In this document: one piece after another, positions 3,154 through 61,761 of the stretch
Position numbering within the stretch: the first letter of the stretch is position 1
Layout of the letters: every line of letters begins with the position of its first letter
Assembly (NCBI RefSeq): GCF_000011385.1
Contig: NC_005125.1
Location: 1,240,001 to 1,304,000 of the forward strand
Length of the DNA: 64,000 nucleotides
Direction: 5' to 3'
Origin: Gloeobacter violaceus PCC 7421
Lineage (GTDB): Bacteria; Cyanobacteriota; Cyanobacteriia; Gloeobacterales; Gloeobacteraceae
Notes under the pieces: model-generated
Seen by the model: the letters and a program-made list of their open reading frames with translations, nothing else
What the model was told of the DNA's origin: nothing
Databases searched by the model: none
Translations under genes and position numbers: made by a program

Positions 3154-5844
<2,691 letters not shown>

Positions 5845-6049
5845 GGCATGTTCCTCCGGGAGGTCGAATGGGCATCTACCGGTTGCGGAAGGTGCCGTTG
5901 GGAAGGACACGGTGCGTCCGGCCGACCGAGGTCGAACCACCGGTAACCGGGCGATGGGCTTGCCCGTGAAGGTGGAGCACAGGCGCTACAAACAAAACGA
6001 TGTCAAAATCTTGTCCATGAGGGATCTTGAGCGCCGCGGCCCACTGCCG

Positions 6050-7033
6050 CTAGATCAAAGTTTGCATGGCGCAGTGGGCCGCTCCAAGCAGGGCGGCCCG
6101 ATCGTTGAGGATGACGCGCACCGGCATCGCCTCTAAAAGCGGGCGCAGACGCCCCTTGGCAAGAAACGCCTCCAAAAATGCCGGTCCTTTGAGCCGCTCC
6201 ACCAGTTTGGGGGCGATGCCGCCCCCCAAAAACACCCCGCCTAGGGCGGCGACCTTCAGGGCGAGATTGCCCGCCTCTGCACCGTACAGGACAATCAGCA
6301 AATCGAGGGCCTGTTCGCACAACCAGGACTTGCCCGCGAGCGCCACCTGCGAGATGACCGCCGCCGGGTTGGGATGGTTGCGAAGCTCCTCGGTGAGCCA
6401 GTTGGGTTCCTCCCCGCGCCGGGTGTCCCGCAGAAATTGATAGATATTCACCAGTCCCGGACCGGAGAGCACCCGCTCCCAGCTCACATGGGCAAAGCGC
6501 ACCCGCAGATGGTGCAGCAACTCGATCTGCAGCGCGTCGCCGGGCGCAAAATCGGTGTGGCCGCCCTCGGTGGCAAAGGGCCGATGCCGCCTGCCATCCC
6601 AAAACAAACCCGCCTCCCCAAGCCCCGTTCCGGCGGCGATCACCGCCTGGTTGCCCATCGCATCCGCCGCGCCCGGGTTGAGTACGGCAAAATCCGCCGG
6701 TCCCAGCAGCGCAATGCCGTGGGCGTTGGCCTCCAGATCGTTAATCAGTCCCACCGTCGGCAGCTTGAGCCCGGCAGCCAGGGTGGAGGCGTCGATCGAC
6801 CAGGGCAGGTTGGTCGTCTCGGCCCGGCCCCGCCTGACCGGCCCCGCCACCCCGAAGCAGGCGGCGGCGACCCGCAGATGGTACTCAGAAATAAAAAGAT
6901 AGACGATTTGGTCGAGACTGGAGTAATCCCGGCTGGCATAGGTCTCGGAGACGATCGGCATCAAGTTGCCCGCGACCGGCTCGAAGCCGGCCAGCCGCGT
7001 GTTGGTTCCGCCCACATCACCCGCAAGAATCAT
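6050..7033 (-). CDS. glk: Glucokinase
   Basis: The 327-aa protein starts MILAGDVGGTNTRLAGFE, the phosphate-1 motif of the bacterial glucokinase family. Other motifs are LINDLEANAHGI (the catalytic Asp), AAGTGLGEA (phosphate 2) and ATEGGHTDF. It phosphorylates glucose to glucose-6-phosphate with ATP. ATG 7033 is chosen over upstream codons by the motif at the very N-terminus. Its start overlaps the end of zwf by 17 bases, so the two are one operon and the kinase product passes directly to the next enzyme. Confidence 0.93.
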   Translation of the reverse strand: MILAGDVGGTNTRLAGFEPVAGNLMPIVSETYASRDYSSLDQIVYLFISEYHLRVAAACFGVAGPVRRGRAETTNLPWSIDASTLAAGLKLPTVGLINDLEANAHGIALLGPADFAVLNPGAADAMGNQAVIAAGTGLGEAGLFWDGRRHRPFATEGGHTDFAPGDALQIELLHHLRVRFAHVSWERVLSGPGLVNIYQFLRDTRRGEEPNWLTEELRNHPNPAAVISQVALAGKSWLCEQALDLLIVLYGAEAGNLALKVAALGGVFLGGGIAPKLVERLKGPAFLEAFLAKGRLRPLLEAMPVRVILNDRAALLGAAHCAMQTLI

Positions 7034-8555
7034 GGTCCGCTCTCCGCCACTGCCGACCGTCGCGCCCGAGCAACTCCTCCGCCTGCTGCGGACCCCAACT
7101 GCCGGCCGGATAGGTGACCAGGTCGGCAGTTGAATCGTTCCAGGCAGCAAAGATCGGTTCGACGACCTGCCAGGCCGCCTCCACCGTATCCGAGCGCTGA
7201 AACAGGGTAGCATCGCCCATCATGCAGTCGTAGAGCAACGTTTCATAGCCGATCGCCCGCTCGCCGCCGAAGTGGCGATTGTAGCAAAAGTCCATGCCGA
7301 CGCCGGCCATGCGCACCGCCGGTCCCGGCACTTTGGCGCCGAATTCGAGGCTGATGCGCTCCTCCGGCTGGATGTGGAGCACCAGATAGTTGGGTGTGAG
7401 GCGCTCCACCGGCGTGTCGCGAAACATCGCGTAGGGCGCCTGCTTGAAGCGGATGGCGATCTCGGTGCTGCGCCTGGCCAGGGCCTTGCCGGTGCGCAGA
7501 TAAAAGGGCACCCCCGCCCACCGCCAGTTGTCGACGGCGAGTTTGAGGGCGACGAACGTCTCGGTGGTCGAATCCGGCGCCACCCGCGGCTCGGCGCGGT
7601 AGTCCGGCAGTGCCCGCTCCCCGACCGTACCCGCGGCGTACTGAGCGCGCACGACGTGGGTGGAGATCTGGGCGGGCTTGAGGGTCTGGACGGCTTCCAG
7701 CAGCTTGGTCTTTTCGGTGCGCACGGCGTCGGCCCCGAAGCAGGTGGGCGGCTCCATCGCGGTGAGGGCCAGCAACTGGAAAAGATGGTTGGGCACCATG
7801 TCCCTGAGCGCCCCGGCCCGCTCGTAGTAACCGCCCCGCTTTTCGACCCCGACGCTCTCGGCGACGGTGATCTGCACGTGGTCGATGTGGTTGCGGTTCC
7901 AGAGGGGCTCGAACAGGCCGTTGGCGAAGCGCAGGACCAGGATGTTCTGGACGGTTTCTTTGCCCAGGTAGTGATCGATGCGGTAGACCTGGCTTTCGGA
8001 GAGGTCGCGCCGGAGGCGGGCGTTGAGGGCTTGGGCGGAGGCGAGATCCTGACCGAAGGGTTTTTCGAGGACGACGCGTCGCCAGTGACCGGTCTCCTCG
8101 CGGGACAGCCCAGCCCAGCCCAACTGCTCGACAATGCCGCCGAAGTGCTCAGGGGCGGTCGCCAGATAAAATAGCGTGTTGCCGTCCGTGTTGAATTCGG
8201 CTTCCGCCTCGGCCAGCCGCTGCCGCAGGCGGGCGTAGGTATCGGGAGCTTCGAAGTTGGCTTCCAGATAAAAAAATCGCTGCGCAAGGGCATCCCAGAC
8301 GGCCGGATTGACTGCAGCAGTGCCATGGCGCTGCAGCGCCTCGCCCAGTTGTGTCCGAAAATTCGTGTCGGTGAGCGGGGCGCGGGCCAGCCCGATCAAG
8401 ACAAATTTTTCACCTAATAGCCCGCCCGCGGCCAGGTTATAGAGCGCCGGCACCAGTAGCCGACCGGTAAGATCTCCAGCCGCCCCGAAGACGACCATCG
8501 CGCAGGGTCCAGCCGGTGGGGCGATTGGGAAGGGCGTCGTCGAATCGGTTGCCAT
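7017..8555 (-). CDS. zwf: Glucose-6-phosphate 1-dehydrogenase
   Basis: 512 aa. VVFGAAGDLTGRLLVPALYN is the N-terminal NADP-binding motif; RIDHYLGKETVQNIL holds the catalytic substrate-binding site. It makes 6-phosphogluconolactone and NADPH, the entry step of the oxidative pentose phosphate route that cyanobacteria use in the dark. The start at 8555 follows the stop of the gnd stub by only 5 bases; the GGAGGG at the end of that stub serves as ribosome site, so zwf translation is probably coupled to the stub. The ORF upstream of 8555 in this frame is not family-like. Confidence 0.95.
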   Translation of the reverse strand: MATDSTTPFPIAPPAGPCAMVVFGAAGDLTGRLLVPALYNLAAGGLLGEKFVLIGLARAPLTDTNFRTQLGEALQRHGTAAVNPAVWDALAQRFFYLEANFEAPDTYARLRQRLAEAEAEFNTDGNTLFYLATAPEHFGGIVEQLGWAGLSREETGHWRRVVLEKPFGQDLASAQALNARLRRDLSESQVYRIDHYLGKETVQNILVLRFANGLFEPLWNRNHIDHVQITVAESVGVEKRGGYYERAGALRDMVPNHLFQLLALTAMEPPTCFGADAVRTEKTKLLEAVQTLKPAQISTHVVRAQYAAGTVGERALPDYRAEPRVAPDSTTETFVALKLAVDNWRWAGVPFYLRTGKALARRSTEIAIRFKQAPYAMFRDTPVERLTPNYLVLHIQPEERISLEFGAKVPGPAVRMAGVGMDFCYNRHFGGERAIGYETLLYDCMMGDATLFQRSDTVEAAWQVVEPIFAAWNDSTADLVTYPAGSWGPQQAEELLGRDGRQWRRADHDSCG

Positions 8556-56727: not shown

Positions 56728-57384
56728 ATGTCTGCACCCGTTCCACCTGTTCTCACCCCTGAGAACACCCTGGGTGTTGACGTTGGGTTGCAGGATTTCC
56801 TGGTAGATAGCGATGGCAAGCATGAGCCTATCCCTCAGTATTACCGCAAAGCGCAGCAGCGGCCGGCGAGGGCGTAAAGGCAGCTATCGCGCAAGCGTAA
56901 CAAAGCCGGCAAACGCAGAGCAAAGGCAGTTCGCAAGGTAGGACGTATGCATTTGCGAGTCGCCAACCGGCGCAAGGATTTCCACCACAAAACCGCTGTC
57001 AAGCTTCTCGCAAAGTCCAAGGTCATAGCCCATGAAGACTTGAACATTCAAGGGTTGGCGAGCACCCGTCTTGCCAAGTCAGTATCCGACGCTGGTTGGG
57101 GTCAATTCATTACAATCCTGACAAACAAGGCTGCAAGAGCCGGGTGTCTGGTGATTGCAGTGAACCCAAACGGTACTACACAAATGTGTTCCGGCTGCGA
57201 TACGCAAGTACCCAAGACTCTTGGCGAGAGGTGGCACAGTTGCCCCCGATGTGGTCTGGAGTTGAACAGGGACCAGAACGCAGCGCGGAACATTAAGAGC
57301 AGGGCGGTGGGGCATCCCGTCCCTGCTCGGGGAGGCTACCGCAGTACCGTTCCTACGAACCGAGAAGCCTGCGCTCTATGCTAA
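56728..57384 (+). pseudogene. TnpB (IS200/IS605 family) remnant with a stop codon
   Basis: The frame starts in the RuvC-I region (TLGVDVGLQDFLVDSDGK), reads a TAA at 56875-56877 where the family usually has Gln, then continues RQLSRKRNKAGKR, HLRVANRRKDFHHKTA, the RuvC-II Glu (AHEDLNIQGL), the zinc finger (CSGCD...CPRCG) and RuvC-III (NRDQNAARNI). The N-terminal half of TnpB (usually near 400 aa) is missing. TnpB is an RNA-guided nuclease; this copy cannot be active. No TnpA gene is near. Confidence 0.85.
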
Positions 57385-59288: not shown

Positions 59289-59467
59289 TCGAGAAAGATT
59301 TTTTACTGTGACCTGTGAAGGTCGCAACTTTGTTGAGGCTGAAGCTTACAAAAGTGCTGTCGTGCCGGGTCGTTGAGCTAAGCGCCTCGGTACGATATGT
59401 GAGGCGGGACGAATGACCAGTACGGTCTTCTATCGTCTTGGTCTAAGCCCCAGTCCTGGAGTGAATA

Positions 59468-60319
59468 GTGCGACTGTCAGTTCCCACTCTTAACGACGAC
59501 CCGCAAGACTTTAAGCGTATGTTCAGCTTGCTGCAGCAAATAGAGGGTCATGGTCTGCAGGTCATCTTCGATTTTACAAATTGCAACTTCCTTCGGCAAA
59601 ACGCAGTGGCCTTCCTCGGAGGCATTGCCAGGATGGTGAACTTGCGGGGCGGCACCGTAGAGTTTGCCTTGGACACTTTAGGCAACGATATTCGGGCCAA
59701 TCTGGCTCAAAACGGCTTCCTGGAAGCTTTCGGCTACCCAGAACAGCCATGGACAGGGAACTCCATTCCTTACCGGGAAGACCCATGTGGCTCTGTAAAC
59801 ACTGAAGAGGAGGTTGTTAAGTACCTTGGTTCATATTGGCTTGGCAGAGGCTGGCTGCAAATCAATCCTTCTTTGAGAGACGCCATTGTTGGTAAGGTTT
59901 GGGAGATCTACGCAAACGCCTTCGAGCATGGGCGTTCGGACATCGGGATATTCAGCTGTGGCCAGTTCTACCCGAACCTTCGAGTCCTCAAGTTAGCGGC
60001 TGTAGACTTTGGAGTGGGTATCCCAGCCAATGTTCGGGAATGTCTCAGCAAACCGGAAATGAGGGACTGCGATGCTCTACGGTGGGCTCTCTGTGCAGGC
60101 AACTCCACATGTACAGGGATAGCCCGTGGAATGGGACTCGATCTCCTCAAAAGCTTTCTTAAGGCAAATCAGGGCAGGCTTGAAATATACAGCCACAGAG
60201 GCTACACTGTGATAGATATGGACACTGAGTTACATCTGGATCGATGTTCGCGCTTCCAGGGCACTCTGGTAAACATCACTCTCAAGTGTGATGAGTCGTT
60301 CTTTGACCTGGCTTCGTAG
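59468..60319 (+). CDS. STAS-like / GHKL ATPase fusion protein
   Basis: 283 aa from GTG 59468 (TGGAG seven bases upstream). Residues ~30-90 look STAS-like (LQVIFDFTNCNFLRQNAVAF). Residues ~135-275 are a GHKL ATPase: N-box EIYANAFEHG (Glu146, Asn150, His154), G1 DFGVGIP (Asp180) and G2 with GIARGMGLDLL (Gly221, Gly223). This is the layout of anti-sigma kinases and ATPases of the SpoIIAB/RsbW type, but fused to its own STAS part. First gene of a three-gene unit. Clearly lower GC than flanking genes, so probably acquired. Confidence 0.78.
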   Translation: MRLSVPTLNDDPQDFKRMFSLLQQIEGHGLQVIFDFTNCNFLRQNAVAFLGGIARMVNLRGGTVEFALDTLGNDIRANLAQNGFLEAFGYPEQPWTGNSIPYREDPCGSVNTEEEVVKYLGSYWLGRGWLQINPSLRDAIVGKVWEIYANAFEHGRSDIGIFSCGQFYPNLRVLKLAAVDFGVGIPANVRECLSKPEMRDCDALRWALCAGNSTCTGIARGMGLDLLKSFLKANQGRLEIYSHRGYTVIDMDTELHLDRCSRFQGTLVNITLKCDESFFDLAS

Positions 60320-60345
60320 ATAGCGAAGAGAATCTGGAGCACATC

Positions 60346-60693
60346 ATGAGACAGGAAGTGTTCACCCTCATTGGGAAGTATGCAATGACTCCTGACGCAG
60401 GTCAGGTTGTCTACGAGAAAATATATCCACAATTGCAGGCCGGACGGCAAGTGGAGCTTGATTTTGACAGGGTGGAAATATTTGCCTCCCCATTTTTCAA
60501 CTATGCAGTCGGTCAGCTCCTCGGGAGTATTAAACCGGAGGCTCTCGATCGCTTGCTAATCGTTCAAAACCTTGGTGCGGCTGGCAAGACAGCTCTTGCA
60601 AGAGTGCTGGAAAATGCCCGGCAATACTACAGTGACGAGCACGTGCGCGAGGCTCATGACCGTGTCTTGAGCGAGCAGGCTGCAACTGTCTGA
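60346..60693 (+). CDS. DUF4325 (STAS-like) protein
   Basis: 115 aa from ATG 60346 with GGAG nine bases upstream. QVELDFDRVEIFASPFFNYAVGQLL matches the core of DUF4325, a STAS-like family usually next to a GHKL ATPase gene. It probably binds or is regulated by the ATPase 26 bases upstream. Its TGA overlaps the start of the PIN gene (TGATG), so the three proteins are made together. Confidence 0.8.
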   Translation: MRQEVFTLIGKYAMTPDAGQVVYEKIYPQLQAGRQVELDFDRVEIFASPFFNYAVGQLLGSIKPEALDRLLIVQNLGAAGKTALARVLENARQYYSDEHVREAHDRVLSEQAATV

Positions 60694-61319
60694 TGCCGCC
60701 CAGCTACACTGTATGCGCAGATGTCATTGATATCGGAACAGACGCACCTAGAGCAGATGATATTTTCTTGGTAGATACCAACGTTTGGTACTGGCTAGGC
60801 TACACTCGCTCCAGTTTGATTAGGAAGCCTCCCCAGCAGTATCAGACTTCTACTTATCCTGCATATGTTCAAGCAGCAAGTACCGCGGGCTCCTTGCTGA
60901 CATGGTGTGGTTTGTCGTTGGCAGAGCTGGCCCATATCATTGAAAAAACTGAACACGAAATCTGGAATAGTAGGAATGCTCCTATAAAGCCAAAGGAATT
61001 CAGGCATAATCGTCCGCAGGAGCGGATCAATCAGGTAGTTCCAGAAGTTGAGACAGCATGGGCAATTGTACAAAATATTGCTGCGCCCATCGATACTCTT
61101 GTTGACGACTCAACCACTACGGCAGCCCTCTGCCGCTTCAAATCACAAGCAGTTGACGGCTATGATCTGTTCCTACTGGAAGCAATGACCAAGGCAGGGA
61201 TCAAAAAAGTACTTACAGATGATGGCGATTTTGCTACCGTGCCAGGCATCCAAGTATTTACTTGCAATGCAAATGTCATAAGTGCGGCAACGGCACAGGG
61301 TCGCTTGATTCAGCGCTGA
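60693..61319 (+). CDS. PIN-domain nuclease, third member of the unit
   Basis: 208 aa. PIN acidic residues: Asp28 in FLVDTNVWYWLGY, Glu78 in SLAELAHIIEK, Asp158 in DGYDLFLLEAM and Asp176-Asp179 in LTDDGDFATVPG. It is longer than VapC toxins (about 130 aa) because of an insertion between the first and second motifs. PIN domains cut RNA. It overlaps the DUF4325 stop by one base. No VapB-type antitoxin is present; the ATPase/STAS pair may control it instead, which is inference. Confidence 0.78.
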   Translation: MPPSYTVCADVIDIGTDAPRADDIFLVDTNVWYWLGYTRSSLIRKPPQQYQTSTYPAYVQAASTAGSLLTWCGLSLAELAHIIEKTEHEIWNSRNAPIKPKEFRHNRPQERINQVVPEVETAWAIVQNIAAPIDTLVDDSTTTAALCRFKSQAVDGYDLFLLEAMTKAGIKKVLTDDGDFATVPGIQVFTCNANVISAATAQGRLIQR

Positions 61320-61545
61320 TTCAGAATCCGCAAAGTTGTATACAATAGCTAAATCAAGACGAATGTGCCAGCGACCCATAGGCTGGAACTGATCGAGACA
61401 CCAGATCTGTCAGTGTCAGTGCGTTAGCAACGATTGGTGGACTGAAGAGACAAGGACGACGGGCGAACACCGCTACTTCACCAGAATCCCACCAAGTCTA
61501 AGATTTTATCGAGATGCATAAAAGCATTTGCTTGCGGAGGCAGGA

Positions 61546-61761
61546 ATGCGTGAGTCGTGGGTATATCAAGAGATTTTTGACAAAGGGAAACTGCAAGGTG
61601 TGCGCCGCATAATTTTGCGCCAGCTCACCCAGAAACTTGGCAAACTGCCTGCCGACTTCGTGCAGGAGATCGAATCTATTACTGATAGTGAACGCCTGGA
61701 ACGACTCGGTTTACTCGGCTTGCAAGCTGACGACTTCGATAGTTTGCGTGCCCAGATATAA
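61546..61761 (+). CDS. DUF4351-like C-terminal fragment
   Basis: 71 aa from ATG 61546 with GGAGG upstream. MRESWVYQEIFDKGKLQGVR and the LRQLTQKLGKLP...LGLLGLQADDF pattern match the C-terminal DUF4351 region of Rpn/PD-(D/E)xK family proteins, which are usually about 250-300 aa. The nuclease part is missing from the 226 bases upstream, where I see no gene. It may be a relic or an internally started short form. Confidence 0.5.
   Translation: MRESWVYQEIFDKGKLQGVRRIILRQLTQKLGKLPADFVQEIESITDSERLERLGLLGLQADDFDSLRAQI

What the first reader, a model, noticed from the sequence alone, without database searches (positions are those of the whole stretch)
59468..61319. Three-gene unit: STAS-GHKL ATPase, DUF4325 and an enlarged PIN nuclease
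Seen: three ORFs in one direction, tightly spaced (26-base gap, then a one-base overlap), with intact GHKL boxes, a STAS-like small protein and all acidic residues of a PIN nuclease. The segment is less GC-rich than hemA or ilvE nearby, and is bounded by a DUF885 gene and by gene relics, as in an accessory island. Known: GHKL/STAS pairs act as partner switches for sigma factors, and PIN proteins cut RNA. Inference: the ATPase/STAS pair may gate the PIN nuclease, giving a toxin or defence-like module without a classical antitoxin. I do not know of a characterised system of this composition, though one may exist.
Basis: partly seen in the sequence, partly recalled or inferred. Interest (0 to 1): 0.78.

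Follow-up and report, generated by a model that had tools for sequence, protein, structure and literature searches.

The report
VapKSC toxin–antitoxin operon in a cyanobacterium
These three adjacent genes are a member of VapKSC, a bacterial self-poisoning system described in 2026 in which a kinase frees an RNA-cutting toxin from its inhibitor, so the unit is real and informative but no longer of an unknown kind.

Summary
In detail: three intact genes in one direction (59468-60319, 60346-60693, 60693-61319), a 26-base gap, then a one-base overlap, in a GC-poor insert that a sister genome lacks. They are vapK-vapS-vapC. Chambers et al. (EMBO J, June 2026; PMC13373217) described this composition as VapKSC, a kinase-controlled toxin-antitoxin system. 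The window's PIN protein matches the solved Escherichia VapC (9Z7O) at E=1.3e-45 and its DUF4325 protein matches VapS at E=5e-17. The ATPase is 46% identical to an E. coli VapK. Residues tested in that paper are conserved: VapC D28, VapS S48 and the VapK aromatic (F41 here). What is added: the trio recurs in fixed order in cyanobacteria and about ten other lineages. VapC is never found intact without VapS, whereas VapK is often lost. The phospho-acceptor S/T is kept in 49/49 loci with intact VapK and VapC but lost in 3 of 9 VapK-less ones (p=0.003). One VapK-less locus joins VapSC to a TPR-CHAT protease, possibly a changed trigger. Activation by single-stranded DNA is inferred, not shown, here.

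The parts
59468..60319 (+). vapK: N-terminal STAS-like domain plus GHKL kinase domain, 283 aa, GTG start
   Evidence: 46% identical over 290 columns to VapK of an E. coli vapKSC locus; AlphaFold model pLDDT 84, Foldseek matches to SpoIIAB (1tid_A, TMt 0.65) and, more weakly, to the STAS protein RsbS (6jhk_A, TMt 0.55)
59588..59590 (+). VapK Phe41, equivalent of Escherichia VapK F54 (putative ssDNA-stacking aromatic; CapK W68)
   Evidence: Aligns with F49 of the annotated E. coli VapK, which is F54 if the in-frame ATG five codons upstream is used; F, W or Y at this column in nearly all intact VapK
59915..59917 (+). VapK Asn150, N-box Asn of the GHKL site
   Evidence: Invariant in alignments A4 and A5
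60346..60693 (+). vapS: STAS-like (DUF4325) antitoxin with C-terminal helical tail, 115 aa
   Evidence: PDB 9Z7O chain A (Escherichia VapS), E=5e-17 over residues 8-112; Pfam DUF4325 E=3.5e-17
60487..60489 (+). VapS Ser48 codon, predicted phospho-acceptor (motif FASPFFNY)
   Evidence: Same position as S48 of Escherichia VapS; S or T in 49/49 loci with intact K and C
60625..60690 (+). VapS C-terminal tail (residues 94-115), predicted to reach towards the VapC active site
   Evidence: Equivalent of residues 94-116, deletion of which abolished antitoxin activity in Escherichia; this tail is absent from DUF4325 proteins without a PIN neighbour
60693..61319 (+). vapC: PIN-domain nuclease toxin, 208 aa
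   Evidence: PDB 9Z7O chain C (Escherichia VapC), E=1.3e-45 over residues 5-205; 42% identical to E. coli VapC
60774..60776 (+). VapC Asp28 codon, catalytic acid (D28A abolished toxicity of the Escherichia protein)
59289..61721 (.). Segment absent from the homologous place in sister genome G003; holds the trio and part of a DUF4351 relic

Best explanation
The unit is a vapKSC operon. VapC is an RNase toxin. VapS binds VapC through its STAS domain and pushes its C-terminal helix towards the catalytic site, so VapC stays off. When VapK is activated, by analogy by single-stranded DNA from DNA damage or phage infection, its GHKL domain phosphorylates Ser48 of VapS, VapS lets go, and VapC cuts RNA and stops growth. 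By homology with direct support here: gene identity, domain make-up, the phospho-acceptor, catalytic acids and inhibitory tail. Inferred only: expression in this organism, ssDNA as the signal, the RNA target, and a benefit against phages.
For: Published system: PMC13373217 (experimental details in 35-37). Sequence membership: VapC E=1.3e-45 and VapS E=5e-17 to 9Z7O; VapK, VapS and VapC 46, 38 and 42% identical to an E. coli vapKSC locus. Key residues D28, S48 and F41 conserved. Same order K-S-C in cyanobacteria, Planctomycetes, Desantisbacteria, Verrucomicrobia, Bacteroidota, Selenomonas, Pseudomonas, Pasteurellaceae, Deinococcus, Streptococcus phage and other viral contigs. Decay pattern: in 70 non-redundant loci with intact VapC and flanks long enough to judge, VapS is intact in 70 and VapK broken or absent in 21, as expected if VapS alone holds VapC in check. 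S/T48 kept in 49/49 K-intact, lost in 3/9 K-absent loci, Fisher p=0.0027. Of three genomes of these K-less loci that were searched whole (G298, G198, G030), none had a VapK match.
Against: No expression or activity data for this genome. Even in Escherichia, phosphorylation of VapS by VapK and ssDNA binding were not measured directly (VapK was insoluble); they rest on the S48E, S48A and F54A mutants, an AlphaFold 3 model and analogy with CapK. Loci were collected largely by VapC similarity and are related to one another, so the decay counts are not fully independent samples.
Confidence: 0.88

Rival explanations
1. Same K-S-C switch, but VapK answers a signal other than single-stranded DNA in cyanobacteria (for example a protein ligand or nucleotide state).
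For: The STAS and GHKL domains are kept, but ssDNA activation was not shown directly for any VapK. The aromatic column is V or R in some members (L125, L132).
Against: The aromatic equivalent to F54 is F in all intact cyanobacterial-class VapK and F, W or Y in most others.
Confidence: 0.15
2. Sigma-factor partner switch (RsbW/RsbV or SpoIIAB/SpoIIAA type) with an unrelated PIN gene downstream.
For: VapK model resembles SpoIIAB; DUF4325 is a STAS-like domain.
Against: The PIN gene is coupled to vapS by overlap and follows it in fixed order across phyla; VapS and VapC homologues form a solved complex (9Z7O); DUF4325 proteins without a PIN neighbour lack the tail that contacts VapC.
Confidence: 0.03
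3. CapK/CapS-type transcriptional control of a neighbouring immune operon.
For: Same kinase and STAS families in the same paper.
Against: VapK here has no N-terminal HTH and VapS has no winged helix; the next gene after the STAS protein is the PIN toxin.
Confidence: 0.02
4. A silent or decaying island in this strain: intact by chance but not expressed or not functional.
For: Many relatives carry broken copies; surroundings hold gene relics (DUF4351, TnpB fragment); patchy presence, absent in three congeners.
Against: All three frames and all known functional residues are intact.
Confidence: 0.08

Closest known systems
VapKSC (Escherichia sp. E4736; Chambers et al. 2026, PMC13373217; PDB 9Z7O)
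   Same: Gene order, domains, sequence similarity of all three proteins, catalytic D28, phospho-acceptor S48, C-terminal VapS tail, aromatic of VapK
   Different: 38-46% identity; on the chromosome of a deep-branching cyanobacterium; no functional data
CapK/CapS regulators of immune operons (same paper)
   Same: STAS-GHKL kinase and STAS substrate
   Different: CapK carries an HTH and CapS a winged helix that represses transcription; here the substrate is an antitoxin without a DNA-binding domain
VapBC toxin-antitoxin modules
   Same: PIN-domain RNase toxin held by a co-encoded antitoxin
   Different: The antitoxin is STAS-like, not a VapB DNA-binding protein; release is by phosphorylation rather than antitoxin degradation; the paper reports that VapS does not displace the Mg2+ ion
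RsbW/RsbV and SpoIIAB/SpoIIAA partner switches
   Same: GHKL kinase phosphorylating a Ser/Thr on a STAS domain
   Different: Target is a PIN toxin rather than a sigma factor; the kinase carries its own STAS-like domain

Membership tests
VapKSC | Three-gene operon in order VapK (STAS-GHKL, no HTH), VapS (STAS plus short C-terminal region), VapC (PIN) | tested here: met
VapKSC | VapC homologous to Escherichia VapC with catalytic acids intact (D28 and others) | tested here: met
   E=1.3e-45 to 9z7o_C; D28, N30, E78, D155, D177, D179
VapKSC | VapS homologous to Escherichia VapS with conserved Ser/Thr at position 48 | tested here: met
   E=5e-17 to 9z7o_A, S48 aligned
VapKSC | VapS C-terminal tail needed for inhibition (residues 94-116) | tested here: met
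   Tail present: PIN-linked VapS have 63 or more residues after the acceptor, PIN-less DUF4325 proteins 43-56
VapKSC | VapK aromatic equivalent to F54 (CapK W68) | tested here: met
   F41, aligned with the E. coli VapK Phe
VapKSC | VapC toxic, VapS neutralises, S48E releases, phage protection | not testable with these tools
   Shown for the Escherichia system in PMC13373217, not for this locus
VapKSC | VapK activated by ssDNA and phosphorylating VapS | not testable with these tools
   Not shown directly even for Escherichia VapK
CapKS | HTH on the kinase and winged helix on the STAS protein | tested here: not met
   No such domain found by Pfam; protein lengths leave no room
VapBC | VapB-type DNA-binding antitoxin next to the PIN gene | tested here: not met
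   Only DUF4325/STAS upstream; no VapB family hit

The most novel reading that the evidence does not exclude
VapSC is a portable toxin-antitoxin cassette whose trigger can be exchanged. In most genomes the trigger is the VapK kinase. In some cyanobacteria VapK is gone, Ser48 of VapS has become Pro or Ala, and VapS sits behind another gene. In L121 (Brasilonema MAG) a 1236-aa TPR-CHAT caspase-like protease ends 3 bases before a VapS that carries an extra N-terminal domain of about 150 residues. Elsewhere a related domain is a free-standing neighbour of TPR-CHAT genes, which suggests that a protease, instead of a kinase, releases VapC there. This concerns relatives, not the window's own copy.
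Probability: 0.35. Interest if true: 0.7.

Novelty: new member of a known kind. Interest (0 to 1): 0.4.

Why it matters
It places a kinase-gated toxin-antitoxin system, so far tested only in Escherichia, in a deep-branching cyanobacterium, and shows the same three genes across about ten lineages. The natural losses act as a comparative test of the published mechanism: kinase lost, phospho-acceptor free to change; toxin never intact without antitoxin. The VapK-less loci point to exchangeable triggers, which would be new. For the window itself the value is annotation: these genes can now be named and given a testable role.

Tried and rejected
VapC relatives on plasmids and in phage records by tblastn with the window protein: none at E 1e-5; VapK found more distant ones. 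PADLOC hit of VapK to DrmA (E=1.5e-5): covers only a short stretch of a 1750-position model within the GHKL part, so taken as shared ATPase fold, not as DISARM. Sigma-factor partner switch and CapKS considered and rejected (see rivals). The psiM100 ORFD N-terminus as a PIN domain: motif seen by eye, but profile comparison did not support it (4.7% probability), so left open. The profile comparison is circular (its query is in the alignment) and was not used. An alignment of all distant VapK forms was too diverse for a collection scan. The N-terminally extended VapS was not found in viral contigs.

Full report
Observation. The three ORFs are present exactly as described: 59468-60319, 60346-60693 and 60693-61319, all on the + strand, with a 26-base gap and then a one-base overlap. 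Pfam gives HATPase_c (below its cut-off), DUF4325 (3.5e-17) and PIN (1.6e-4). The segment 59289-61525 has GC 0.498 in a window of 0.62. The genome is a single contig of 4,659,019 bases, which from memory matches Gloeobacter violaceus PCC 7421 (the name is an inference).

Locus history. Three genomes of the same genus have no match to VapS, and no VapC or VapK match was reported in them in the phylum searches. In G003 the DUF885 stop codon is joined directly to sequence equivalent to window 61722, so about 2.43 kb holding the trio is missing there. G001 has a different arrangement at the same place: a DUF4351 piece, then a copy of the DUF885 tail, then the ilvE side, so the site is variable. 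Insertion here is more likely than deletion there, given the GC difference, but direction was not proven.

Identity. A literature search for PIN, STAS, GHKL and anti-phage found Chambers et al., EMBO J, June 2026 (PMC13373217). [quoted passage not shown] A search for 'VapKSC' finds only this paper. Its crystal structure 9Z7O contains the closest solved relatives of two of the window's proteins: VapC, E=1.3e-45, and VapS, E=5e-17. No solved relative of VapK was found by sequence. An E. coli vapKSC locus beside mntR at a prophage edge (L190; carried by 2 of 5426 E. coli genomes) gives 46, 38 and 42% identity for K, S and C. The AlphaFold2 model of the window's VapK (pLDDT 84, pTM 0.87) matches SpoIIAB (TMt 0.65) and, more weakly, the STAS protein RsbS (TMt 0.55, E=6e-3), in line with a STAS-GHKL architecture.

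Residues. Published mutants map onto the window: VapC D28, VapS S48 and VapK F54. D28 and S48 have the same numbers in the window's proteins. VapK F54 aligns with F41 of the window; the annotated E. coli VapK numbers it F49, and an in-frame ATG five codons upstream restores F54. The numbering agreement for VapK is therefore inferred from a start codon choice.

Conservation. PIN homologues occur in 25 of 386 phylum genomes sampled and VapK homologues in 22. Mapping with local HMMs shows K-S-C in the same order in cyanobacteria, in another class of the phylum (L058, L059) and, by record title, in Planctomycetes, Desantisbacteria, Verrucomicrobia, Pseudomonas, Spirabiliibacterium, Selenomonas, Scalindua and a Bacteroidota MAG, in Deinococcus and Streptococcus phage records and in several viral contigs. 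Some MAG labels may be wrong; the spread does not depend on any one of them.

Natural losses as a test. After removing redundant loci, 83 loci with a VapS were classified. VapC is intact in 70 that have enough flank to judge; VapS is intact in all 70, VapK is intact in 49, broken in 12 and absent in 9. If lesions fell on VapS at the per-residue rate seen for VapK, about 13% of VapS genes would be broken, and none in 70 has a probability of about 4e-5; relatedness makes this figure rough. VapC loci without VapS were seen only where VapC is itself broken or the contig ends. The phospho-acceptor is S or T in all 49 loci with intact K and C and in all 12 with broken K, but P, P and A in three of nine K-absent loci (Fisher p=0.0027, three changes on the tree). 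G298, G198 and G030, which hold K-less loci, have no VapK match anywhere. A VapS-based search gave the same pattern: every VapS next to an intact VapK had S or T, and all non-S/T cases lacked VapK nearby. DUF4325 proteins paired with a GHKL gene but without a PIN neighbour lack the C-terminal tail (43-56 residues after the acceptor against 63 or more), much like the inactive tail-deletion mutant of the paper.

Mechanism. Best supported: VapS clamps VapC; activated VapK phosphorylates S48; VapC is released and cuts RNA. Shown for Escherichia: VapC toxicity, VapS neutralisation, loss of both binding and rescue with S48E, need for the tail, about 2 logs of protection against one phage, and loss of protection with D28A, S48A or F54A. 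Not shown even there: direct VapK activity and ssDNA binding. Inferred here: everything functional.

Variants. In L121 a TPR-CHAT protein of 1236 aa ends three bases before an N-terminally extended VapS with S48 changed to P. In other genomes a domain similar to that extension (about 50% identity) is a free-standing neighbour of TPR-CHAT genes (L200, L202, L215). In L129 a TIGR04255 protein overlaps an extended VapS, also S48P. In L040 VapS is S48A and the extension may not be translated. These suggest that the trigger can be swapped; no function was tested.

Verdict. Real, correctly read, and now a member of a named system. Novelty lies in the comparative evidence and in the VapK-less variants, not in the window's locus. 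Interest 0.4.

Noticed in passing
L121:1462-5172 and 5176-6657 (same locus as L199): TPR-CHAT protease gene directly upstream of an N-terminally extended VapS (S48P) and intact VapC, with a second VapS-like gene at 6820-7176; no VapK.
   Followed up: partly
L129:4518-5336 and 5318-6001: A TIGR04255-family gene overlaps an extended VapS (S48P) followed by intact VapC; no VapK.
   Followed up: partly
L206, L207, L216 (and L201): VapS with S48A found without VapK or VapC within about 1.5 kb; possible stand-alone antitoxins.
   Followed up: no
L064:2683-5304 (Methanothermobacter prophage psiM100, inserted fragment IFa): VapK-like ATPase, DUF4325 protein and a 492-aa protein with an acetyltransferase-like part and a DTN motif at its start; possible archaeal relative, PIN fold not supported statistically.
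   Followed up: partly
L067, L068, L069, L070, L198: Two-gene GHKL-DUF4325 pairs without a PIN gene, in Streptococcus and Clostridioides phages, two plasmids and a viral contig; DUF4325 lacks the tail but keeps the Ser in most. Their target is unknown.
   Followed up: partly
L127:4389-5594, L125:4501-5652: VapK proteins of 401 and 383 aa; in L127 a long insertion lies between the STAS-like and GHKL parts.
   Followed up: no
L190:6666-8525 (E. coli NZ_AP045049.1): vapKSC lies between mntR and prophage tail genes, and occurs in only 2 of 5426 complete E. coli genomes.
   Followed up: partly
window 61528-61761 and 56947-57384: DUF4351 relic downstream and a TnpB (IS605/Cas12f-like) C-terminal fragment upstream; the DUF885-ilvE site is rearranged differently in G001.
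   Followed up: partly
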